Shown piece after piece: positions 43,128 through 53,561 of a DNA stretch of 53,561 nt. Made by a program: the position numbers and the translations under genes. The notes beneath the pieces were generated by a model, which worked only from the letters and a program-made list of their open reading frames with translations, was not told the origin of the DNA and made no database searches. The stretch comes from Paludibacter jiangxiensis (GTDB lineage Bacteria > Bacteroidota > Bacteroidia > Bacteroidales > Paludibacteraceae), in assembly GCA_945870155.1 (NCBI GenBank), contig CAMBSB010000018.1, positions 1-53,561 on the forward strand, read 5' to 3'. Numbering within the stretch: position 1 is the first letter of the stretch; the number at the start of each line of letters is the position of its first letter.

Positions 43128-44231
43128 ATGAAAAAGTTAATGGTATTATGCATAGTTATGACTAGTTTGATTCAGCTCAAAGCACAAAACAATACATATC
43201 AGTTTCTAATTGGAACCTACACGGTTAATACCACCAGTAAAGGTATTTACTCGCTGAACTTTGATGCAGAAAACAATAAAGCTAACTTGATTTTAGCTGC
43301 CGATAGTCTGTCGAATCCAAGTTTTATCACATTTTCGAGCGATAAAAAGTTTTTATATGCCGTTAATGAATCAGGTGAGCAAAGTAAAGTTGTAGCCTTT
43401 CAATTTGATAAAAAAACAGCTAAGCTGAAAAAAATAAATTCAGTTTCGGCTGTAGGATTGGGACCATGTCATATCACTTGTTCTGCTAGTCATGTTTTTA
43501 CAGCTAACTATACAAGTGGAAGTGTTTGCGTTTTCGAACGTAAGCCTGATGGTAGTTTGTCTGAAGCAATTCAAGTTGTTCAACATCAAGGCAAAAGCAT
43601 TAATGTGACACGCCAAAATGTTCCTCACGCACATCAAACTACACTTTCGCCTGATGGTAAGTTTTTACTAGTAAATGACCTTGGGACTGATTATTTAACG
43701 GTTTATGCTTACGACAAAAATGCAAAAAATGATGTTTTAACGCTTCATGACAAAATGCTGGTTAAACCCGGTAGTGGACCGCGCCATCTTACATTTAGCA
43801 AAAATGGAAAATCAATTTATTTGTTACATGAACTCGATGGAACAATCACACATTTGGCTTTAAATGAGGGAAAATTAACCAAAAAACATGAAACTACAGT
43901 AATCAGAAAAAAAGACATAATAGCCGGTGCTGCCGATATTCATATTGATCATAAAGGTAAATTTCTTTATGCAACTAACCGAGGCAATGCCAACGATATT
44001 AGCTGTTTCAAAATTTTAAAAAACGGTGATTTACAATTTGTTCAACAAATTTCAACTTCAGGGAGCAGTCCCAGAAATTTTGCTATAACTAACGATGATA
44101 AGTATATTTTGGTTGGTAATCAGAAAACAAATCAGATTGTTGTTTTTAATATTAACAATAAGACAGGAGAACTTACAGAAAATAAAAACAAAATTGATTT
44201 GGGTGCACCAGTCTGTATATTAGAGTTTTGA
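43128..44231 (+). CDS. Secreted lactonase-family beta-propeller protein
   Basis: The 367-residue product has a signal peptide (to about residue 20) and a seven-bladed beta-propeller of the 6-phosphogluconolactonase/YbhE type. Blade repeats are visible, such as LSPDGKFLLVNDLGTDYLTVY, GPRHLTFSKNGKSIYLLHE, HIDHKGKFLYATNRG and SPRNFAITNDDKYILVGN. The periplasmic location argues against the classical cytosolic 6-phosphogluconolactonase role; another sugar lactone or a different substrate is possible. Repeat elements lie downstream, one possibly acting as terminator. Confidence 0.87.
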   Translation: MKKLMVLCIVMTSLIQLKAQNNTYQFLIGTYTVNTTSKGIYSLNFDAENNKANLILAADSLSNPSFITFSSDKKFLYAVNESGEQSKVVAFQFDKKTAKLKKINSVSAVGLGPCHITCSASHVFTANYTSGSVCVFERKPDGSLSEAIQVVQHQGKSINVTRQNVPHAHQTTLSPDGKFLLVNDLGTDYLTVYAYDKNAKNDVLTLHDKMLVKPGSGPRHLTFSKNGKSIYLLHELDGTITHLALNEGKLTKKHETTVIRKKDIIAGAADIHIDHKGKFLYATNRGNANDISCFKILKNGDLQFVQQISTSGSSPRNFAITNDDKYILVGNQKTNQIVVFNINNKTGELTENKNKIDLGAPVCILEF

Positions 44232-44240
44232 CAATAAAAA

Positions 44241-44272
44241 ACCCCCTTACCCCTAAAGGGGGGAAAGAGGGA
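44241..44272. repeat. G/C-rich palindromic repeat, copy 6
   Basis: The stretch after the lactonase gene reads ACCCCCTTACCCCTAAAGG followed by GGGGAAAGAGGGAA, with arms CCCC/GGGG. A terminator role is possible although no T-run follows. Confidence 0.6.
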
Positions 44273-44317
44273 ATGTTTGAAATGAATTTAAAATATTTAA
44301 CTATTTCTTAAACTTGA

Positions 44318-44830
44318 TCAAATAACCAATGACGGAGCAGCAAAAACCCTCGTTGATAATTCAGCATCAAGCATATACAATCCACGGGCATCTGTGCCAA
44401 ACAATTCATAACGTTTGCAAAGATCATTCGATTTTTGTTCTTCTTCGCCTTGTTCTTTCACAAACCAATCTAGGAATTGCATCGTTTTAAAATCCTTCAA
44501 TTCATAAGCCACCACATAAATATCGTTAATCCATTTCGAAATTAACAATTCATGCTGATAAGTTTCTTCTAAAACCTGAGCTATATTATTCAATTCAATA
44601 TCAGGTTTTGCAATGGCATCAAGTACAACTTTCTCTCCATTGTTTAACATATATTTAAGAAACAACATGGCATGTGCATATTCTTCCTGAACCTGTATCC
44701 CAAACCAGTTTCCAAAACCGTTCAGGTTTTGATCATAAAAATAATTCGACATATCTAAATACAAATACGACGAATAAAATTCTTTGTTAATTTGACTATT
44801 GATTAAGTCAACAATTCTTTTGTCTAACAT
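44318..44830 (-). CDS. Ferritin (bacterial non-haem)
   Basis: The 170-residue protein forms a four-helix iron-storage subunit. All ferroxidase ligands of the FtnA type are at equivalent positions: Glu17, Glu50, His53, Glu94, Gln127 and Glu130. It oxidises Fe(II) and stores it as a mineral inside a 24-mer shell. It starts 36 bases after the end of murA on the same strand, but its unrelated function makes an independent promoter likely. Confidence 0.95.
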   Translation of the reverse strand: MLDKRIVDLINSQINKEFYSSYLYLDMSNYFYDQNLNGFGNWFGIQVQEEYAHAMLFLKYMLNNGEKVVLDAIAKPDIELNNIAQVLEETYQHELLISKWINDIYVVAYELKDFKTMQFLDWFVKEQGEEEQKSNDLCKRYELFGTDARGLYMLDAELSTRVFAAPSLVI

Positions 44831-44866
44831 AAATATTTAATTTTTAGATTAATGATTATTTGAATA

Positions 44867-46171
44867 TTAAATTCTTTCAATTTTTGCACCAAGTGCATTG
44901 AGCCTTTCGTCAATTTTTTCGTAACCTCGATCAATTTGGTCAATATTATGAATCGTACTTGTACCTTCGGCGGCCAATGCAGCAATTAGGAGTGCTATTC
45001 CGGCCCTGATATCGGGCGAACTCATAGTTGAAGCGCGCAAATGAAGTTGATTGCCCAATCCGATTACGGTTGCCCTGTGCGGATCGCAAAGTATAATTTG
45101 AGCGCCCATATCAATTATTTTATCCACAAAAAACAATCTGCTCTCGAACATTTTTTGATGAATAAGCACACTTCCTTTCGCTTTTGCTGCAACAACAAGA
45201 AACACACTTAATAAATCGGGAGTTAAACCCGGCCAAGGTGCATCAGCAATGGTCATAATTGAGCCATCTATAAATGATTCAATTACATAACCATCTTGCT
45301 GTGGTATAAAAATATCATCATTTCGGAGTTCTAGTTTAATGCCCAATCTTCTGAAACTTTCAGGAATTATTCCCAAATCAATGTATGATACGTTTTTGAT
45401 TGTAATTTCTGACCCTGTCATGGCAGCCATTCCAATAAAACTTCCCACCTCTATCATATCTGGTAGAATACGATGAGTACATCCACTTAGTTTTTGAACA
45501 CCTTCGATGGTCAAAAGGTTCGAGCCTACACCCGAAATTTTTGCTCCCATGGCATTCAACATTTTGCAAAGTTGTTGCAAGTAGGGTTCGCAGGCGGCAT
45601 TATAAATTGTTGTAATTCCTTTTGCTAAAACCGCAGCCATCAAAATATTAGCTGTACCTGTAACTGATGCTTCATCAAGCAACATATAACAACCTTTTAA
45701 ATCTTTAGCTTCAATTTTATATTGCTTTTTATCAGGGTCGTAGTTAAAATCGGCACCTAACTTTTGGATTCCTAAAAAATGCGTATCCAATCGTCTACGT
45801 CCTATTTTATCACCTCCCGGCTTGGGTATAGATGCTTTGCCAAAGCGAGCTACTAACGGTCCAACAATCATTACCGAACCACGTAATGAAGAACTTTGTT
45901 TGTAAAATTGTTCGGTTTCGAGATAATTTAAATCAATGTTTTTGGAAGTAAAACGGTAGGAATTTCCATCTAATTTATCTACTTCAACCCCCAAGTCACG
46001 CAACAATTGAATTAAATTATTAACATCCAGTATGTCAGGAACATTACTAATTGTAATACTTTCAGGACTTAATAAAACTGCGCAAAGTACCTGCAAAGCT
46101 TCATTCTTTGCACCTTGGGGTGTAATCTCACCCGATAATTTACGTCCACCTTCTATTCGAAATGAAGTCAT
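44867..46171 (-). CDS. murA: UDP-N-acetylglucosamine 1-carboxyvinyltransferase, Asp-type
   Basis: It transfers enolpyruvate from PEP to UDP-GlcNAc, the first committed step of peptidoglycan synthesis. The product (434 residues from the ATG at 46171) has GAKNEALQVLCAVLL (catalytic Lys region), RGSVMIVGPLVARFG, TGTANILMAAVLA, DMIEVGSFIGMAA and TDGS-like IADAPWPGLTPDLLS. In the PEP-binding loop the usual PGGC is PGGD: Asp121 replaces the Cys that fosfomycin alkylates. The nearby in-frame start at 46198 was rejected because MTSFRIEGG opens the known fold. Confidence 0.95.
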   Translation of the reverse strand: MTSFRIEGGRKLSGEITPQGAKNEALQVLCAVLLSPESITISNVPDILDVNNLIQLLRDLGVEVDKLDGNSYRFTSKNIDLNYLETEQFYKQSSSLRGSVMIVGPLVARFGKASIPKPGGDKIGRRRLDTHFLGIQKLGADFNYDPDKKQYKIEAKDLKGCYMLLDEASVTGTANILMAAVLAKGITTIYNAACEPYLQQLCKMLNAMGAKISGVGSNLLTIEGVQKLSGCTHRILPDMIEVGSFIGMAAMTGSEITIKNVSYIDLGIIPESFRRLGIKLELRNDDIFIPQQDGYVIESFIDGSIMTIADAPWPGLTPDLLSVFLVVAAKAKGSVLIHQKMFESRLFFVDKIIDMGAQIILCDPHRATVIGLGNQLHLRASTMSSPDIRAGIALLIAALAAEGTSTIHNIDQIDRGYEKIDERLNALGAKIERI

Positions 46172-46196
46172 AGTACATAAAATTGCCCCCCATCCC

Positions 46197-46214
46197 AACC
46201 CGATAAAACGGGTT
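46197..46214. repeat. Inverted repeat AACCCG-ATAAAA-CGGGTT
   Basis: A 6-bp stem between murA and the DUF4290 gene, preceded by GCCCCCCATCCC. It may be a divergent relative of the G/C palindromic family, but the core differs. Confidence 0.4.
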
Positions 46215-46288
46215 AAATGGCTGGGAAATGAAATATTATAATGTATTGATTTGAAAAATGTTGTTAAAAAAAACCGACTTCTTGAATA

Positions 46289-46873
46289 TTATTTTCTTCT
46301 CGTTTTGTTCTTTCTGTTTTGCAAAACATCTTTAGAAGCTACCAATTTAAGAAAATCTTCGGAAACATCTAATTTTCCTTTTGATAATTCACGTAAATCA
46401 TCAAAAATCTTTTTATTATCAACCACTTCTTTGTTCCAGGTAAGGAAGCATTTTTTCATCTGGTTGGCAATCAATCTGATAAGCTCATCTTTTTCTTCAC
46501 CTTCGGGATAATCACCCACTTTTTCAATCATTTCCTCCAAGGTGCGTCCGTAGTGCTGATATTTTATGCGAGAATTTTTATAAGGAATACTTTCGGGGCG
46601 AGTGTACAGATTTTCGGCAGAAACTATTTCGTAAGGGAAATCAATATCCAGTTTAAAATCGGACATAATGGCAACATGGTCCCACAATTTGTGTTTAAAA
46701 TCATTCACATCGCGTAAATATGGGAACATATTTCCCATAATATTGATAATTGTTTGAATGCATCTGGTTCGCTCTTCTCTGTCTTCAATAGTTAAAGCAT
46801 GGGTAACCATTTGCTGTATGTTTCGCCCATATTCGGGCATAATAAGTTTTCCTTGTAAAGTAGGATATTCCAT
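46289..46873 (-). CDS. DUF4290 family protein
   Basis: The 194-residue cytoplasmic protein matches the DUF4290 family: PEYGRNIQQMVTHALTIEDREERTRCIQTIINIMGNM near the N-terminus, LWDHVAIMSDFKLDIDFPYE in the middle, and HYGRTLEEMIEKV later, ending in a basic tail. Function is unknown; it is conserved beside murA in Bacteroidota. The ATG at 46873 is chosen because the upstream in-frame TTG at 46903 falls in the -7 box. Confidence 0.88.
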   Translation of the reverse strand: MEYPTLQGKLIMPEYGRNIQQMVTHALTIEDREERTRCIQTIINIMGNMFPYLRDVNDFKHKLWDHVAIMSDFKLDIDFPYEIVSAENLYTRPESIPYKNSRIKYQHYGRTLEEMIEKVGDYPEGEEKDELIRLIANQMKKCFLTWNKEVVDNKKIFDDLRELSKGKLDVSEDFLKLVASKDVLQNRKNKTRRK

Positions 46874-46900
46874 TTTTTTTAATTTAATTAGGATAGAATA

Positions 46901-46908
46901 CAAAAGTA
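46901..46908 (-). promoter_or_regulatory. Bacteroidota -7 box (TACTTTTG) for DUF4290-murA
   Basis: The minus-strand match lies 27 bases before the chosen DUF4290 start. It likely drives both genes of the pair. Confidence 0.55.
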
Positions 46909-47077: not shown

Positions 47078-48166
47078 TCATTTTGTTTGAGCTTTGGATC
47101 CTTCAACTTCTTTCACCAGATAAATCATGGTAGGCAAGTGGTCGCTATAACCATTTAGCCAAACTCCGCCTGAATGAGTACGCAAAGGAGATCCTTTATA
47201 TCTACCTTCTTGTTGAATCAGAAAATTGCGGTAAAAGATTTCAGACTTCCAAAACTTCAATTTACTTTTTTCGGCATTAAGTAAATCGTTGGATATAATT
47301 ATCTGATCAAAAAGATTCCATTGGTTATTGTACGATAAGGTTCCTATGCCTTTTTCAAGTGTTTTCCAAAAAACATTGTATAAATCACCAGTTTTCACAT
47401 CCTCTGCATTTTTCTTAGCACCTAAAATTGTAGCACAACTTTCATTAAATGGGTCATCGTTTAAATCGCCCATAACTATCACTTTCGATTTAGGATCAAC
47501 TTTGTAAAGGGAATCAACGATTGAACGTGTTAAAGCAGCTGCAGCATTTCTTTTTTCACGAGAATCCATTTCACCACCCGACCTTGAAGGCCAGTGATTT
47601 ACAATAACGTGAATTTTCTCGTTTTGTAAATATCCACTAACCATCAATTGATCACGTGTTAAAAAATTCGGATCTGCCATTTTTAAACGATATGATTTGC
47701 TGTTGGTTACAGTAAAATAGCGCGGATTATAAATTAAACCTACATCTACCCCACGGCGGTCGGGACTATCATAATGTACAATTTGTAACGATCTGTTTTT
47801 CAATGCGGGCTGTTTCACTAAATCTTCCAAAACCCCCTTGTTTTCAAGTTCCGAAACGCCTATCAGCGATATTCCTCCAGGGCAATCTTCCATGCCAATT
47901 TGTGAAATTACTGTCGACATATTGTGAAGTTTTGCATTATACTTCATCGAATTCCACTTGTTTACACCATTTGGAAGGTATTCCTCATCATTGTTTTCAT
48001 TGTTAATTGTATCAAACAAATTTTCTAAATTGTAAAATGCAACACAATTAATACTGACGTTTATTTTTTTTTCAGGACTTGTAACTAAATTGCTTTTTGG
48101 CTTACACGAAAAGCTGAGAACAATTGTAAAAAGAATTATTAGATTGAAATTACTTAATTTTTTCAT
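47078..48166 (-). CDS. Lipid-anchored endonuclease/exonuclease/phosphatase (EEP) enzyme
   Basis: The 362-residue protein has a type II signal peptide with lipobox SFSC (Cys near 21). The EEP (DNase I-like) fold is complete: AFYNLENLFDT, ISLIGVSELEN (metal-binding Glu), DRRGVDVGLIYNP, VIVNHWPSR (catalytic His), VIVMGDLNDDPFNE (Asp/Asn), and GYSDHLPTMIYL (final Asp-His). The fold cleaves nucleic acids, phosphoinositides or other phosphodiesters; the lipid anchor places it outside the cytoplasm. It diverges from a TonB receptor and DUF5689 genes, suggesting a joint scavenging role. Confidence 0.88.
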   Translation of the reverse strand: MKKLSNFNLIILFTIVLSFSCKPKSNLVTSPEKKINVSINCVAFYNLENLFDTINNENNDEEYLPNGVNKWNSMKYNAKLHNMSTVISQIGMEDCPGGISLIGVSELENKGVLEDLVKQPALKNRSLQIVHYDSPDRRGVDVGLIYNPRYFTVTNSKSYRLKMADPNFLTRDQLMVSGYLQNEKIHVIVNHWPSRSGGEMDSREKRNAAAALTRSIVDSLYKVDPKSKVIVMGDLNDDPFNESCATILGAKKNAEDVKTGDLYNVFWKTLEKGIGTLSYNNQWNLFDQIIISNDLLNAEKSKLKFWKSEIFYRNFLIQQEGRYKGSPLRTHSGGVWLNGYSDHLPTMIYLVKEVEGSKAQTK

Positions 48167-48545
48167 GCACTTGGTTTTTTATTTGTAAATATATAATTGA
48201 AAAGGAAGGCAAAAGTGAGAAAAAAAACTGATATTAAGAAACATATTTATGAAAATTAGATTAATTCTTTCAGAATAGTACCTTATGGTTTTTAAATGGG
48301 CTATATTTACAGTTCAATATCAATAGATTATTTTTTCAATTGAATTTAATATTTAGTTGATATACAGAAGATAAAACTCTGTAAGTTTTTTTTTATTGGC
48401 TTGTTAGCGTACTTTTGTATAAAAATAAAGAAAAACATCGAAAATATTGATTCAAGTTTCACAAAAAGGTTGTAAATTGCAGCCCTTTTTTCCGAAAGAT
48501 TTTTTTAAACATTGAATGTAAAAATAATTTAGAATTGCTAATAAT
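48167..48545. other. 379-base divergent intergenic region
   Basis: It lies between the EEP enzyme and the TonB receptor gene and so probably holds both promoters. A TACTTTTG box at 48410-48417 points to the receptor. On the minus strand a weaker CACTTTTG lies at 48210-48217. The implied receptor leader is about 120 bases and AT-rich. No ORF or strong hairpin is seen. Confidence 0.6.
48410..48417 (+). promoter_or_regulatory. Bacteroidota -7 box (TACTTTTG) for the right-end TonB locus
   Basis: The exact match lies 128 bases before the receptor ATG, implying a long 5' leader. No clear -33 element is in place. Confidence 0.45.
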
Positions 48546-51332
48546 ATGAGAAAAATTTCAACAATAATTTTAGTCTTTTTTATTACTATAGCAGCAGTCT
48601 CAGCTCAAACCAGGGTGAGAGGTGTAGTTAAAATTGGGGGGGGAGATAGACCTTTGCAAGCCGTGAAAGTGACACTGTTAAAACAAAACATCAGTACTCA
48701 AACCAATGCTAATGGTGAGTTTTTGTTAAGTTATATTAATTCAGGAGATGAAGAAATAGGCTTAAGCATTGAAGGTTATTTTAGTCAGATTAAACTTATA
48801 AATATTAAAGAAAATGAAACAACCGATTTAGGGGTATTTTATCTTAATTCAGATGTTTTAAATGATTCAAAAAATGAGAGAATTATGCAATTGAGTGAAT
48901 CGGAACTTGAATCGGAAGATCTCAAATCTCAGAATATTGCTGTCACATTAAATTCAAATGATGTTTATTCATCACAAACAAGTTATTCGTTTAGTGCCAT
49001 GCGTTTTCGCACACGTGGTTACGACAATAAATACGAATCGACTTATATAAATGGAGTACATTTTATAGATGCTGAGCGCGGAAGTTTTAATTATTCATCA
49101 CTAGGTGGCTTGAATAATGCTTTTAGAAACAAAGATATTACCTTCGGCACAACGCTCAATAGCTATTCTTTCGGAAATATAGGAAACAACACCAATATTA
49201 CAGCTAAGGCAAGTGAATATGCAGCCGGTTCACATGCAAACATGGCTTTGTCCAATCGTTCTTACAGAGTGCGAGGACAGTTTACACATGGTACCGGAAT
49301 TATGAATAATGGTTGGGCATTTGCCATTTCGGGGGTAATACGCTGGGCAACGGGCGATGGATTATTACAAAGCAATGTGGAAGGAAATTTTTATAACTCG
49401 GGAGGTCTTTTCCTTTCGGCTGAAAAAAGGATAAACGATAAACACAGCATTTCCCTTTCAGCATTTGGTGCTCCTACCCGCAGGGCAGGACAGTCGGCAG
49501 TAACTAAAGAAACACACGATTTAGTTGGTGGTTCAGTATATTACAATCCTTATTGGGGATATCAAAATGGTGAAGTTCGTAATTCAAGAATTGTTGAAAC
49601 CTTTGACCCAACCGCCATTCTTGCTCACGATTGGAAAATTAGCGAAACTCAACGCTTGCGTACCGGTTTAGGTTTTCATCATAGTTGGTACAGTAATTCT
49701 GCATTTTCGTACGATGGCTTAAATCCAGGATCGGACTATTATCGTAATATGCCAAGTTTTATTTCGGATGATGCTTCGGCACAAGAACAACTTACAAATC
49801 TTTGGAAAAAAGATGAATATACCCAACAAATTAAATGGGATGAAATTTATCGTGCCAACAAGGTAAATAATGATGATAATCCGAATGGTCAAGCACGCTA
49901 TATATTGGAACGCCGACACAATGATTTGATGGAAACCATTTTAAACTCAGTTTACACAAATCAAATAAATAAAAACTTTAAACTTTCAGCTGGTTTAGAA
50001 GCACGTGTATCGAAAGGAATGCATTATGTAACAATTGATGATATGCTTGGTGCAAACAAGTATATTGACAAAGACACTTATGCCGAACGTGATTTGGTTG
50101 GTGGAACTTTGCAAGATGCCGATCCACGCATTATTGAAAATGACATAAATGATCCTGATAAAATAAAAAATGTAGACGACATAATTCGTTATAATTACGA
50201 TATGAATGTGACTACAGCAAATGTTTTTGCACAGGCAGAATGGAAATTCTCACAGTTTAATATTTTTGCAGGAACAAAAGCAAGCTATACACAGTTTTAC
50301 CGTTTTGGCCACATGGAAAATGGACGAGCCTGGTATCTTCGCGAAGTGGAAGGAAAAAATGTAAATTCTTACGGAAAAAGTCAAACCTGGTTTTTTACCG
50401 ATCCTTCTGTGAAAGCCGGTTTCTCGTATAATATTGATAATAGAAGCCAAATTTTAATTAATGGTCTGGCCGAAACAAGAGCACCATTAGTACAAGATGC
50501 TTATGTTTCTGAACGTATCAAAGATGTCCTTTCAAAGAACTTAAGTAGTGAAAAAATTCTTTCATACGATTTGACCTATTCATTTAATTATAAAGTAATT
50601 CGAGGTCGCTTGAGTGGTTTTCGCACCCATGTGAATGATGCAGTAAAAAAACTCGGATATTTTGATGATGAATATAGAACATTTATAAATCACCTGTTAA
50701 GCGGTGTAAATAAAATATACCAAGGTGTTGAATTAGGCGTTTCAGTACCAATTAATTCAATGTTTTCAGTTTCAGCAGCAGGAACTTATGCCGATTATCA
50801 CTATACAAGTAATGCTACGGGTATAAAAAGTTATGAAAATGGTGCTGTAGATGATATTACAGAAACTGTTCTGACAAAAGGTTTACGCATTAATTCCGGT
50901 CCGCAAATGGCTGCCAATTTCACCATCGACTTTTTTAGTAACCTTTGGTTTGCTGATGTAACATTAAATTATTACGACAATAACTATCTTGATTTTGCTC
51001 CTAACCGTTTTACCGAAAACAACCAACAGGTTTTGAAAAATTATCCTGATCTTTACGAAAAATTAGGAAAACAAGAAAAGCTTCAAGCAGGTTTTATGCT
51101 AGATGCATCTATTGGGAAACTTATTTATTTGAAAAATAGAAAATCGTTGAATTTCAATTTAAGTATGAGTAATATTTTGAACAATACGAATATGGTTACA
51201 GGAGGATATCAACAAGCACGTATGCCAATGAGTAGCGGTGCTATTAACCCAAAAGGAGCAGATTGGTTTGCTAACAAGTATTATTATGCATGGGGATTTA
51301 ATATGTTTTTCCATGTTGGCTATAAATTTTAA
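48546..51332 (+). CDS. TonB-dependent receptor with carboxypeptidase-like N-terminal domain
   Basis: The 928-residue receptor has a signal peptide (to about residue 20, VSAQ) and a carboxypeptidase-regulatory-like beta domain (about 22-98). A plug follows (SYSFSAMRFRTRGYDNKYESTYINGV), then a large 22-strand-type barrel ending in aromatic FHVGYKF. Codons 31-33 are eight consecutive G (48636-48643), right after the signal peptide, so a one-base slip would stop translation early. It leads a + operon with DUF5689 (13-base gap) and DUF6359 (39-base gap) lipoproteins. The ligand is unknown; the adjacent EEP enzyme suggests a phosphodiester product. Confidence 0.9.
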   Translation: MRKISTIILVFFITIAAVSAQTRVRGVVKIGGGDRPLQAVKVTLLKQNISTQTNANGEFLLSYINSGDEEIGLSIEGYFSQIKLINIKENETTDLGVFYLNSDVLNDSKNERIMQLSESELESEDLKSQNIAVTLNSNDVYSSQTSYSFSAMRFRTRGYDNKYESTYINGVHFIDAERGSFNYSSLGGLNNAFRNKDITFGTTLNSYSFGNIGNNTNITAKASEYAAGSHANMALSNRSYRVRGQFTHGTGIMNNGWAFAISGVIRWATGDGLLQSNVEGNFYNSGGLFLSAEKRINDKHSISLSAFGAPTRRAGQSAVTKETHDLVGGSVYYNPYWGYQNGEVRNSRIVETFDPTAILAHDWKISETQRLRTGLGFHHSWYSNSAFSYDGLNPGSDYYRNMPSFISDDASAQEQLTNLWKKDEYTQQIKWDEIYRANKVNNDDNPNGQARYILERRHNDLMETILNSVYTNQINKNFKLSAGLEARVSKGMHYVTIDDMLGANKYIDKDTYAERDLVGGTLQDADPRIIENDINDPDKIKNVDDIIRYNYDMNVTTANVFAQAEWKFSQFNIFAGTKASYTQFYRFGHMENGRAWYLREVEGKNVNSYGKSQTWFFTDPSVKAGFSYNIDNRSQILINGLAETRAPLVQDAYVSERIKDVLSKNLSSEKILSYDLTYSFNYKVIRGRLSGFRTHVNDAVKKLGYFDDEYRTFINHLLSGVNKIYQGVELGVSVPINSMFSVSAAGTYADYHYTSNATGIKSYENGAVDDITETVLTKGLRINSGPQMAANFTIDFFSNLWFADVTLNYYDNNYLDFAPNRFTENNQQVLKNYPDLYEKLGKQEKLQAGFMLDASIGKLIYLKNRKSLNFNLSMSNILNNTNMVTGGYQQARMPMSSGAINPKGADWFANKYYYAWGFNMFFHVGYKF
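48636..48643 (+). repeat. G8 homopolymer tract in the receptor coding region
   Basis: Eight consecutive G in a strongly AT-rich gene encode Gly31-Gly33. Such tracts can vary in length through slipped-strand mispairing. Only one length is visible here. Confidence 0.9.
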
Positions 51333-51345
51333 TTACAATTGAAAT

Positions 51346-52281
51346 ATGAAAACTACATTTAAAATTACAATAACTACAACTTTAATATTTGCTTTTGTAG
51401 CTTGCTCACAATATAATTTTGAGCCTGAAAGTGGATTAGCGAAAGGAGAAAAACTTAGTACGACTATATCTGTATCCGAGTTAAGATCCACCTACATGAT
51501 ATCTCCTGAATTTTTTACTGCCGATAGAATTAATTCGAACAAAGATCTTGTAATCAACGGAATAGTTACAAGTACCGATATTGAAGGAAATGTGTACAAA
51601 TACATTGCAGTGCAAGAGGAAACTCCCAATGGACAAGCTATTCGTATTTCGATTGATGCATCCGGTATTTCATCTATCTACCCGCTTGGACAAAGAGTTT
51701 CGGTAAAACTCAACGGTTTATTTATTGGCAAGTATGGTGATAGTCCGCAGGTTGGAGTATATTACTTGCGCCCAAAGGATGGAAGGATTTCACCGGGATC
51801 CATTCCTATGCCCATTGCAAGGCAACATGTTATTCCTTACGGAGAGCCTGAACCCAAAGCTGTTATAGCGGATACTATGACTATATCGCAAATTCTTGCT
51901 GCACCCCGTGAAGAAATGCATTACCGACTGGTTTGTATAAAAAATGTATGGTTTACAGGTAAAGGTTTTGATTTCGGGAAACCTGCTACAATAGCCGAAA
52001 AAGATAAAATCTTTGCTCCAGGAACCGGGGGTATAGGATATCCACAATCCAGAGAAATTCAAGATGGTACAGGCAGCACCGTAGTAGCAACCAGCGAATT
52101 CGCGAAATTTGCTCAACATCCACTTCCTGCATCCACTTACAAGGGAAATATTACTGTTATTGCAAGTTGGTACAGAGATAAAGCAACTACTGCAGGTAAC
52201 TATCAACTCACACTTCGCACATTAGGCGATCTTGGCAAAGGATTTGATGGTTATTTAACTTCAGTAAATTATGTAAGATAA
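51346..52281 (+). CDS. DUF5689 domain lipoprotein
   Basis: The 311-residue protein has lipobox FVAC (Cys near 20). The DUF5689 region (about 50-160) is visible: LVINGIVTSTDIEGNVYKYIAVQEET..GQAIRISIDASGISSIYPLGQRVSVKLNGLFIGKYGD, an OB-fold-like beta barrel. A second beta-rich half with TGGIGYPQSREIQDGTGSTVVATSEFAKFA follows. In Bacteroidota such proteins accompany TonB receptors and secreted nucleases; ligand binding at the surface is inferred. Confidence 0.82.
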   Translation: MKTTFKITITTTLIFAFVACSQYNFEPESGLAKGEKLSTTISVSELRSTYMISPEFFTADRINSNKDLVINGIVTSTDIEGNVYKYIAVQEETPNGQAIRISIDASGISSIYPLGQRVSVKLNGLFIGKYGDSPQVGVYYLRPKDGRISPGSIPMPIARQHVIPYGEPEPKAVIADTMTISQILAAPREEMHYRLVCIKNVWFTGKGFDFGKPATIAEKDKIFAPGTGGIGYPQSREIQDGTGSTVVATSEFAKFAQHPLPASTYKGNITVIASWYRDKATTAGNYQLTLRTLGDLGKGFDGYLTSVNYVR

Positions 52282-52320
52282 TAAATTCAAAATAAATAAA
52301 TTATTAAAAATTAGACTGTT

Positions 52321-53325
52321 ATGAGAAAAATAAAATTTTTTAGCTTTTTGCTTTTTGCTTTTGCATTGAGCTTTACTGCATGTACTAATGTTGACGAACC
52401 AGATCCAGACCCAATTGTTGTAGTAGGTGATGGAACAAAAACTAAACCTTATTCGGTTGCAGAAATTATTAAACTTAATCCAAAAAGTACCACAGAGGCT
52501 GTTAAAACAGCAGTTTGGACAAAAGGTTTTATTGTAGGTTATTATAATAGCACTCCAAATCCAGCCATTGTTGAAGCTGTAGCTCCATTTACCGATGATG
52601 TAAATATAATGTTGGCTGCTGTGGCAGGGGAAACTGATAAAACTAAAATGTTGTCGATTCAGTTACCTGCAGGTGCTGTTCGCACAGCGTTAGGACTTAA
52701 AACTACACCTGCCAATATTGGAAAGGAAATTTTAATCTATGGTGATATTTTAATGTATAATACATTCCCTGGAGTAAAAAATTCAACAGGTTATTGGTTT
52801 GTACAAGCAAATATTGGATTAGAACCTATTGATATTTCGAAAGCTTTACTAAACGAAACATTTGCTTCAAATCAAGGAGCATTTACCATTCAGGATGTTG
52901 TTTTACCAGAAGGTTCAACTTATGTTTGGAAATGGGATACATATAAATATATGAAAGCAAGTTCCTTTATTGGAAGTGCAAAAGCTTCAGAAGGTTGGTT
53001 GATTTCTCCTGCAATAAATCTTACAGGTAAAACTACAGCAGTTTTAAGCTTTGAACACACTGGAAAATATTTTACTGCTAATAAAATTACTGAGCAGGCT
53101 CTACTTGTTTCAACAAATTATTCTTCCGGTTTACCCTCAACTGCTACATGGACAACACTTACTATTCCAACATGGCCAACTGGAAACGATTGGACATTTG
53201 TAAATTCAGGTGATATTTCATTATCATCTGCGTTGGGTCAGTCAAACGTAAGGTTTGCGTTTAAATATTCAAGCACAACTGCTGGCGCATCAACATGGGA
53301 AATTAAAAATATATTAGTGAAATAA
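52321..53325 (+). CDS. DUF6359 / choice-of-anchor-J-like lipoprotein
   Basis: The 334-residue protein has lipobox FTAC (Cys near 21). Its N-terminal domain (GTKTKPYSVAEIIKLN...VWTKGFIVGYY) matches DUF6359, an OB-like module related to the one in the preceding gene. The C-terminal half (about 172-334) is a jelly-roll-like domain of the choice-of-anchor-J/DUF5017 type (ASEGWLISPAINLTGKTTAVLSFEHTGKYF, ending WEIKNILVK). It is the last gene before the IS element and appears complete. Confidence 0.8.
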   Translation: MRKIKFFSFLLFAFALSFTACTNVDEPDPDPIVVVGDGTKTKPYSVAEIIKLNPKSTTEAVKTAVWTKGFIVGYYNSTPNPAIVEAVAPFTDDVNIMLAAVAGETDKTKMLSIQLPAGAVRTALGLKTTPANIGKEILIYGDILMYNTFPGVKNSTGYWFVQANIGLEPIDISKALLNETFASNQGAFTIQDVVLPEGSTYVWKWDTYKYMKASSFIGSAKASEGWLISPAINLTGKTTAVLSFEHTGKYFTANKITEQALLVSTNYSSGLPSTATWTTLTIPTWPTGNDWTFVNSGDISLSSALGQSNVRFAFKYSSTTAGASTWEIKNILVK

Positions 53326-53390: not shown

Positions 53391-53421
53391 TTTGATTTTT
53401 CAAAAAAATGGCATCAAATAA

Positions 53422-53453
53422 TTTGTTTATTTGTAATATATTTTGTATCTTTA
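53422..53453 (+). promoter_or_regulatory. Promoter of the IS1182 transposase
   Basis: TTTG at 53422-53425 and TATCTTTA at 53446-53453 (one mismatch to TAnnTTTG) are 20 bases apart, upstream of the transposase ATG at 53479. Confidence 0.5.
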
Positions 53454-53478
53454 TGGCTGTAAATCAAAGATGTAAGAT

Positions 53479-53561
53479 ATGGCAAAAGCAATTTTCAAGT
53501 CATACAGTCAAGGTCAAGTAAGCCTTTTTCCAGCGAGTTTGGATGAGAAAATTCCACAACA
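53479..53561 (+). CDS. IS1182-family transposase, N-terminal fragment (runs off window)
   Basis: The last 83 bases start MAKAIFKSYSQGQVSLFPAS and continue with LDEKIPQ, matching the conserved opening of IS1182 transposases (FK.Y...Q..L.P.SLDE.IP). About 27 codons are visible. The DDE catalytic domain lies outside the window, so integrity is unknown. Confidence 0.8.
   Translation, partial: MAKAIFKSYSQGQVSLFPASLDEKIPQ

What the first reader, a model, noticed from the sequence alone, without database searches (positions are those of the whole stretch)
47078..53325. Candidate phosphodiester or nucleic-acid scavenging locus
A lipid-anchored EEP (DNase I-like) enzyme with all catalytic motifs diverges from a TonB-dependent receptor followed by two lipoproteins with OB-fold-like DUF5689 and DUF6359 domains and a jelly-roll. 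Seen: motifs, lipoboxes, tight spacing of the three + genes. Known: TonB receptors import scarce ligands with surface lipoproteins, and EEP enzymes cut phosphodiesters. Inferred: extracellular DNA, RNA or another phosphodiester is cut and imported. The pairing with DUF6359 makes the unit look like a distinct system.
Basis: partly seen in the sequence, partly recalled or inferred. Interest (0 to 1): 0.7.

Follow-up and report, generated by a model that had tools for sequence, protein, structure and literature searches.

The report
Likely DNA-import locus of a Bacteroidota
This gene cluster in a bacterium of the Bacteroidota resembles genes that a relative needs in order to take up outside DNA into its genome, and it comes with a linked DNA-cutting-type enzyme and a surface protein shaped like DNA binders, which makes the poorly understood DNA-uptake route of this large group testable.

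Summary
The four genes are real and lie at the stated coordinates. A TonB-dependent-transporter-like protein of this type ('type A') is in 76 of 296 sampled Bacteroidia genomes. A PF19580 EEP gene lies within 10 kb in 63 of these 76. The Riemerella anatipestifer version, recognised by published comEC primers, reads EEP | transporter - DUF5689+choice-of-anchor-J, a few genes from comEC and recA. By gene order these are RA0C_RS04910, RS04915 and RS04920. Deleting RS04915 or RS04920 abolishes natural transformation (PMC8459023). The best reading is therefore an outer-membrane DNA-import module for transformation rather than a nutrient-scavenging locus. The EEP enzyme, not tested in that paper, is a candidate for its missing nuclease. 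The DUF5689 model resembles tandem OB folds of DNA-binding proteins, mostly HIN-200 domains, at low TM-scores. Against it: two nearly complete relatives with an intact module lack a detectable comEC, the DUF5689 lipoproteins are mostly acidic, 13 of 76 genomes lack a nearby EEP, and nothing was tested in this organism. Ten literature searches of the open-licence library found no paper linking the EEP gene to transformation.

The parts
47078..48166 (-). EEP-fold (DNase I-like) enzyme, PF19580, with lipobox by eye; candidate DNA-processing nuclease; counterpart of R. anatipestifer RS04910 by gene order
48167..48545 (.). divergent intergenic region; one Bacteroidota-type -7-like motif TAnnTTTG at 48410-48417 facing the receptor (consensus recalled; no full -33/-7 match)
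48546..51332 (+). TonB-dependent-transporter-like outer membrane protein with N-terminal CarboxypepD_reg-like domain and divergent plug, 'type A'; counterpart of RS04915
51346..52281 (+). DUF5689 lipoprotein, model resembles tandem OB folds of DNA-binding proteins; counterpart of the DUF5689 part of RS04920
52321..53325 (+). DUF6359 plus choice-of-anchor J lipoprotein; its C-terminal part matches the C-terminal part of the M949_1556/RS04920 family
53413..53561 (+). contig end shared exactly with the start of contig C87, where a 549-aa transposase-like ORF (named by eye) runs on: probable insertion sequence that broke the assembly; not part of the module

Best explanation
The locus is an outer-membrane DNA-import module used for natural transformation in Bacteroidota. 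Surface lipoproteins (DUF5689 tandem OB folds with a DUF6359/choice-of-anchor-J partner) bind double-stranded DNA. The TonB-dependent-type transporter carries it across the outer membrane, powered through TonB. The EEP enzyme cuts or trims the DNA at the surface or in the periplasm, and the rest passes to a ComEA-like HHH protein and ComEC. Shown elsewhere: deletion of the counterpart transporter or DUF5689 gene abolishes transformation in R. anatipestifer. Shown here: that the window genes are their counterparts, the class-wide linkage of the EEP, and the predicted folds. Inferred: DNA as ligand, TonB power for this transporter, the step done by the EEP, and that the window's organism is transformable.
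For: (1) PMC8459023 (results and discussion read): markerless deletions of RS04915 and RS04920 are below detection; wild type 5.4e-5. (2) A comEC qPCR primer of PMC8383284 matches 2 of 320 family genomes, G643 and G641, same genus; both primers of the pair fall in one ORF in each. I cannot tell which of the two is R. anatipestifer; both have the same arrangement: recA-dinB-sdhB-sdhA-sdhC-comEC-x-x-EEP | transporter - DUF5689/J (gene names by eye). The published tags RS04870 recA, RS04895 comEC, RS04915 and RS04920 fit at five units a gene, making the EEP RS04910. The lipoprotein of G643 passes NF052645 'M949_1556' at 599 bits, cut-off 475. (3) A type-A profile built from 45 rows without Riemerella and its kin g46 scores the two Riemerella-genus transporters 778 and 794 bits; a paralogue-B profile gives 201 and 202. 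(4) 63 of 76 type-A genomes have a PF19580 gene within 10 kb; orientation changes while linkage persists (divergent, upstream or downstream in line, 17-base overlap in P. bennonis L194). (5) All 35 PDB matches of the DUF5689 model at E<=0.001 are OB-fold-bearing nucleic-acid proteins, about 29 of them HIN-200 type (some labels recalled). (6) tonBA and tonBB mutants transform less, tonBA without loss of iron acquisition (PMC8383284 abstract and TonB section). (7) The window genome has a ComEA-like triple-HHH protein and pieces of comEC.
Against: No function was tested in the window's organism. Among 40 relatives searched, G023 (97% complete) and G025 (99%) have an intact module but no detectable ComEC; G012 (87%) has the transporter without ComEC. 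comEC in the window genome is found only as two pieces on two contigs. ComEA-like proteins are in 284 of 296 genomes and the module in 76, so co-occurrence gives no support; module carrier G239 has no ComEA-like match. 13 of 76 module genomes have no EEP within 10 kb, and 111 of 220 genomes without the module have an EEP. A blastp search with Riemerella comEC, recA, dinB and HHH proteins found nothing in 131 other module loci, so comEC proximity is not conserved in them. DUF5689-row lipoproteins are acidic (median pI 5.0 of 23; the window's is 8.4). TM-scores to the 35 matches are low (0.20-0.31 by query, at most 0.45 by target), and no control protein was folded. RS04910 is not among the published screen hits. 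The tonBB effect was ascribed by its authors to iron. Flavobacterium johnsoniae has homologues but was not transformable in published tests (PMC8459023 discussion; PMC7965970 abstract).
Confidence: 0.66

Rival explanations
1. Nutrient scavenging: extracellular DNA or RNA is cut by the EEP enzyme and the fragments are imported as a source of phosphate, nitrogen or nucleosides; any role in transformation is a by-product.
For: Transporter plus surface lipoproteins plus surface enzyme is the usual anatomy of Bacteroidota nutrient loci (general knowledge). The window EEP has a lipobox. G023 and G025 carry the module without detectable ComEC. A system that imports DNA as food would also fail in transformation when deleted. 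A review says P. gingivalis may scavenge DNA as food (passage of PMC5907639).
Against: The only phenotype found is loss of transformation (PMC8459023). Phosphate omission lowers transformation in R. anatipestifer (PMC8383284 abstract). Transformation needs long DNA, so the route must pass more than nucleotides. No phosphatase or nucleoside transporter is apparent by eye among the window genes at 43128-46903 on the left; the right side is cut by the contig end.
Confidence: 0.2
2. Import of another phosphodiester (phospholipid head group, inositol phosphate, cyclic nucleotide, polymer) processed by the EEP enzyme.
For: The EEP superfamily includes such enzymes (general knowledge). No PDB chain matches the window EEP or its alignment by sequence at E<=0.01, so the substrate cannot be read from a solved relative.
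Against: Its only NCBIfam match is the extracellular DNase subfamily ExeM/NucH, far below cut-off (21.7 against 300 bits). The DUF5689 model resembles nucleic-acid-binding OB pairs. The counterpart genes are needed for transformation.
Confidence: 0.07
3. The EEP gene is only a neighbour (for example a surface DNase that limits DNA binding or loosens biofilm), and the DNA-import unit is transporter plus lipoprotein alone. (A separate question from the two rivals above.)
For: 13 of 76 module genomes lack a near EEP, as do 4 of 12 genomes of the genus of P. bennonis; 111 of 220 genomes have an EEP without the module. The R. anatipestifer screen did not hit RS04910.
Against: 63 of 76 linked, in several orientations; in line in the operon in 8 of 12 genomes of the genus of P. 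bennonis. All 76 module genomes have a PF19580 match somewhere (rows compared by eye). The screen of 3000 mutants need not have been saturating (inference).
Confidence: 0.35

Closest known systems
R. anatipestifer transformation genes RA0C_RS04915 / RS04920 (PMC8459023)
   Same: Same two families in the same order: CarboxypepD_reg transporter, then DUF5689 lipoprotein; choice-of-anchor J present; the same divergent EEP neighbour (RS04910 by gene order).
   Different: 26% identity of the transporters; in the window the lipoprotein is split in two and the second carries DUF6359; the window EEP has a lipobox, the Riemerella one a plain signal peptide by eye; no comEC on the window contig was looked for beyond the genome search, which finds it on other contigs; function untested.
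SusC/SusD-type nutrient uptake pairs
   Same: TonB-dependent transporter followed by a surface lipoprotein.
   Different: No SusD, Plug, barrel or SusC model hit on any of the four proteins at E<=0.01.
ExeM/NucH extracellular DNases (NF033681)
   Same: EEP-fold secreted enzyme with weak similarity.
   Different: 21.7 bits against a cut-off of 300.
HIN-200 domains of IFI16/AIM2-type DNA sensors
   Same: Tandem OB folds, top structural matches of the DUF5689 model.
   Different: No sequence match, TM-scores below 0.5; a resemblance of fold, not membership.
Paralogue type B transporter plus choice-of-anchor J lipoprotein (G000 contig C51)
   Same: Related transporter (24% identity) followed by a J-domain lipoprotein.
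   Different: Separate clade; has a Pfam Plug match; no Pfam match on its lipoprotein; no EEP beside B in the 7 loci looked at.

Membership tests
Riemerella-type outer-membrane transformation module | Transporter orthologous to RS04915 | tested here: met
   Full-length blastp match 1-928, E 2e-88, 26%; on the type-A side by profile scores, 778/794 against 201/202 bits, and tree
Riemerella-type outer-membrane transformation module | DUF5689 lipoprotein directly downstream | tested here: met
   PF18942 144 bits, 13-base gap; same order in G643, 190.5 bits
Riemerella-type outer-membrane transformation module | Choice-of-anchor J domain fused to DUF5689 | tested here: not met
   Both domains present but on two neighbouring proteins
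Riemerella-type outer-membrane transformation module | Neighbouring PF19580 EEP gene | tested here: met
   for the window; for G643; 63 of 76 class-wide. Not claimed as part of the system by the published work
Riemerella-type outer-membrane transformation module | Required for natural transformation | not testable with these tools
   Needs deletion mutants; known only for R. anatipestifer (PMC8459023)
Riemerella-type outer-membrane transformation module | Rest of the pathway in the genome (ComEA-like, ComEC, DprA, ComF) | tested here: inconclusive
   ComEA-like protein present; comEC matched in two pieces on two contigs; DprA and ComF not searched
SusC/SusD nutrient system | SusC/Plug transporter models and a SusD lipoprotein | tested here: not met
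   No such hit at E<=0.01 in Pfam or NCBIfam
ExeM/NucH DNase subfamily | Score above NF033681 cut-off | tested here: not met
   21.7 against 300 bits
TonB-dependent transporter fold | Beta-barrel with plug | tested here: met
   Model pLDDT 86.7; TM by target 0.55-0.73 in the 50 listed matches, solved transporters. Strands not counted; no canonical TonB box recognised by eye
HIN-200 domain | Sequence or fold kinship | tested here: inconclusive
   Best structural matches but TM below 0.5; no sequence match

The most novel reading that the evidence does not exclude
Bacteroidota take up transforming DNA by a TonB-energised transporter instead of a pilus-and-secretin route: DUF5689 lipoproteins are HIN-like tandem-OB receptors for double-stranded DNA, a plugged TonB-dependent transporter is the DNA pore, and the linked EEP enzyme is the missing nuclease that prepares the strand for ComEC. 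The window, with its split lipoproteins and lipid-anchored nuclease, is one lineage's version.
Probability: 0.33. Interest if true: 0.9.

Novelty: new variant of a known kind. Interest (0 to 1): 0.62.

Why it matters
How Bacteroidota move transforming DNA across the outer membrane is open. The R. anatipestifer authors noted that their genes resemble no known machinery and left the nuclease unidentified (PMC8459023). This analysis links a nuclease-type gene to the module across a class and offers a fold for the DNA receptor. It also finds the transporter in Bacteroidales, including Porphyromonas bennonis, Dysgonomonas capnocytophagoides, Alloprevotella tannerae and Paludibacteraceae MAGs, where that paper had found RS04915 homologues only in Flavobacteriaceae. 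Each step becomes testable by single-gene removal or biochemistry, and bears on gene exchange among these bacteria.

Tried and rejected
Plain nutrient (SusCD) reading: no SusC/SusD models match. Sequence search of the PDB for the EEP, DUF5689 and DUF6359 proteins: no useful match. Co-occurrence with ComEA-like HHH proteins as a test of competence: no power, since they are in 284 of 296 genomes. ComEC in relatives: 36 of 40, with exceptions that count against me. Conserved proximity to comEC or recA: none found in 131 loci. Is the module in P. gingivalis, a known transformable species? Not settled: 12 of 12 genomes of the genus of P. bennonis carry type A, but the P. gingivalis 16S primer (recalled) matched none of the 12, so I cannot say that P. 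gingivalis was among them. Paralogue B as the true counterpart of RS04915: rejected by profile scores and tree (quick tree, SH-aLRT only, midpoint root; 53 of 56 rows, three of 1000 aa or more dropped; one gene, of G031, stands twice in the 45-row profile). Charge of the lipoproteins as support for DNA binding: it speaks against. The class counts rest on at most three scored candidates per genome (output) and are lower bounds. Rows under 460 bits were left out of the 76; the next lower match is 362 bits. One search, my first script, failed through my own error and was redone.

Full report
1. Observation. The window holds the four genes as stated. The EEP gene (47078-48166, -) diverges from a receptor (48546-51332) followed, after 13 and 39 bases, by two lipoproteins (51346-52281; 52321-53325). 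Families: PF19580, CarbopepD_reg_2, DUF5689, DUF6359, and choice-of-anchor J at the end of the last protein. The EEP residues N46, E106, H191, D234, N236, D342 and H343 are invariant in 20 aligned sequences, and in 34 in a second set apart from two rows with gaps at the last two. The window is the whole contig C18 of a 5.8-Mb, 339-contig genome. Its last 149 bases equal the start of contig C87, where a transposase-like ORF runs on, so an insertion sequence probably broke the assembly. The nearest named relative by the receptor is a Paludibacter sp. MAG (78% identity), so the host is probably a Paludibacteraceae (inference).

2. The lead. DUF5689 occurs in one paper of the library, DUF6359 in none. 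That paper, PMC8459023 (abstract, results and discussion read), reports a transposon screen in R. anatipestifer. Markerless deletion of RA0C_RS04915 (CarboxypepD_reg outer-membrane protein) or RS04920 (DUF5689 plus choice-of-anchor J) abolished natural transformation. The authors proposed that RS04920 binds DNA and RS04915 transports it, and left the nuclease unidentified.

3. Is the window the same thing? A published comEC primer matches 2 of 320 family genomes, G643 and G641 of one genus. Both primers of the pair lie in one ORF in each fetched region. One of these genomes is presumably R. anatipestifer and the other a close sister; I cannot tell which, and both have the same arrangement. The gene order, counted against the published locus tags, makes the gene divergent from RS04915 an EEP enzyme, RS04910 (some gene names by eye). 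In G643, PF19580 scores the EEP 333 bits and DUF5689 scores the lipoprotein 190.5 bits; NF052645 scores that lipoprotein 599 bits against a cut-off of 475. A type-A profile built from 45 rows, leaving out Riemerella and its kin g46, scores the two Riemerella-genus receptors 778 and 794 bits. A paralogue-B profile gives them 201 and 202. Seven B proteins score 1263-1436 with their own profile and 321-394 with the A profile. The midpoint-rooted tree separates B with SH-aLRT 100.

4. Distribution and linkage. Within the window's own genus, 13 of 24 genomes (window included) have a strong receptor match, one of them partial and one with an inner stop. In 296 class genomes, 76 have a type-A receptor at 460 bits or more and 187 have a PF19580 gene; all 76 are among the 187 (rows compared by eye). 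From listed rows, 60 of 76 have the EEP within 10 kb, 50 of these within 600 bases. Fetched regions added G214, G257 and G218, giving 63 of 76; 13 are not linked (G227's lies 12.7 kb away; some, such as G204, G303 and G135, lie near contig ends). A Fisher test of EEP presence with and without the receptor (76/76 against 111/220) gives p about 6e-19, uncorrected for kinship. Among 80 named loci, 33 show an EEP in the fetched flank and 77 show a DUF5689-, DUF6359- or J-type gene (counted by eye); several flanks are cut short. Positions vary: divergent, upstream in line, or downstream in line, with a 17-base overlap in P. bennonis (L194). In the genus of P. bennonis 12 of 12 have type A, 8 of 12 with the EEP in the operon.

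5. Folds. The receptor models well (pLDDT 86.7) and matches plugged TonB-dependent transporters, though Pfam's Plug model does not match it but does match paralogue B. The DUF5689 protein models with pLDDT 89.8. Of its 35 PDB matches at E<=0.001, about 29 are HIN-200-type DNA sensors, three Teb1, one telomere-end protein, one BRCA2 and one lysyl-tRNA synthetase (some labels by recall). I read this as tandem OB folds. TM-scores are low, so it is a resemblance of fold only. OB pairs in the PDB are mostly nucleic-acid binders in any case (general knowledge), and no control protein was folded.

6. TonB. In R. anatipestifer, tonBA and tonBB mutants transform less. The tonBA mutant does so without loss of iron acquisition, while the authors ascribe the tonBB effect to iron (PMC8383284, abstract and sections on primers, qRT-PCR and TonB seen). 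This fits TonB-driven uptake but does not prove it.

7. Results against. Two nearly complete relatives with an intact module have no detectable ComEC, G012 (87% complete) carries the receptor without it, and the window genome's comEC is in two pieces. ComEA-like proteins are nearly universal and so say nothing (284 of 296); one module carrier, G239, lacks a match. No comEC, recA, dinB or HHH homologue was found in 131 other module loci. DUF5689-row lipoproteins are mostly acidic, median pI 5.0 of 23. The EEP was not a hit in the published screen and is not always linked. F. johnsoniae has the genes but was not transformable in published tests (PMC8459023 discussion; PMC7965970 abstract and passages).

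8. Verdict. Its purpose (scavenging) and its claim of distinctness through DUF6359 are not supported. Best explanation: an outer-membrane DNA-import module of natural transformation, 0.66; scavenging 0.2; other phosphodiester 0.07. Whether the EEP is merely a neighbour is a separate question, 0.35. What seems new, within the library searched (open-licence PMC only, listings seen), is the class-wide linkage of the EEP enzyme to the transformation pair, the HIN-like model of DUF5689, and the spread of the RS04915 family beyond the Flavobacteriaceae.

Noticed in passing
L089:8490-13931 (Riemerella-genus genome G643): Cas2-, Cas1- and Cas9-like ORFs (named by eye) lie just downstream of the transformation pair; similar ORFs lie near it in sister genome locus L091.
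   Followed up: no
L119:1333-3192 (G000:C22), also G016:C54 and G013:C64: A large secreted protein with a weak HHH_3 match (26, 37 and 29 bits, cut-off 27); possibly a second DNA-handling envelope protein.
   Followed up: no
L027:6845-10770 (G000:C51): Paralogue B: related transporter plus choice-of-anchor J lipoprotein without EEP, a separate clade found in several Bacteroidales; ligand unknown.
   Followed up: partly
L134-L141, L143-L144, L146-L150, L156, L161-L163, L169: Paludibacteraceae/Bacteroidales MAGs, many from ruminant or horse gut by title, have longer type-A receptors (over 1000 aa) and no EEP in the fetched flanks.
   Followed up: partly
class genomes, e.g. G161, G116, G199: In many type-A receptors the profile match starts between positions 22 and 108, so most or all of the N-terminal CarboxypepD domain may be missing.
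   Followed up: no
window:53413-53561 and L026:67-1716: A transposase-like ORF (by eye) at the contig end just behind the module; the contig break is probably an insertion sequence.
   Followed up: partly
L158: The module lies in a MAG labelled Clostridium sp.; probably a mislabelled or mixed bin.
   Followed up: no
L167:6962-9724: The receptor is split into two ORFs in a Candidatus Azobacteroides MAG: decay or an assembly fault; left as it is.
   Followed up: no
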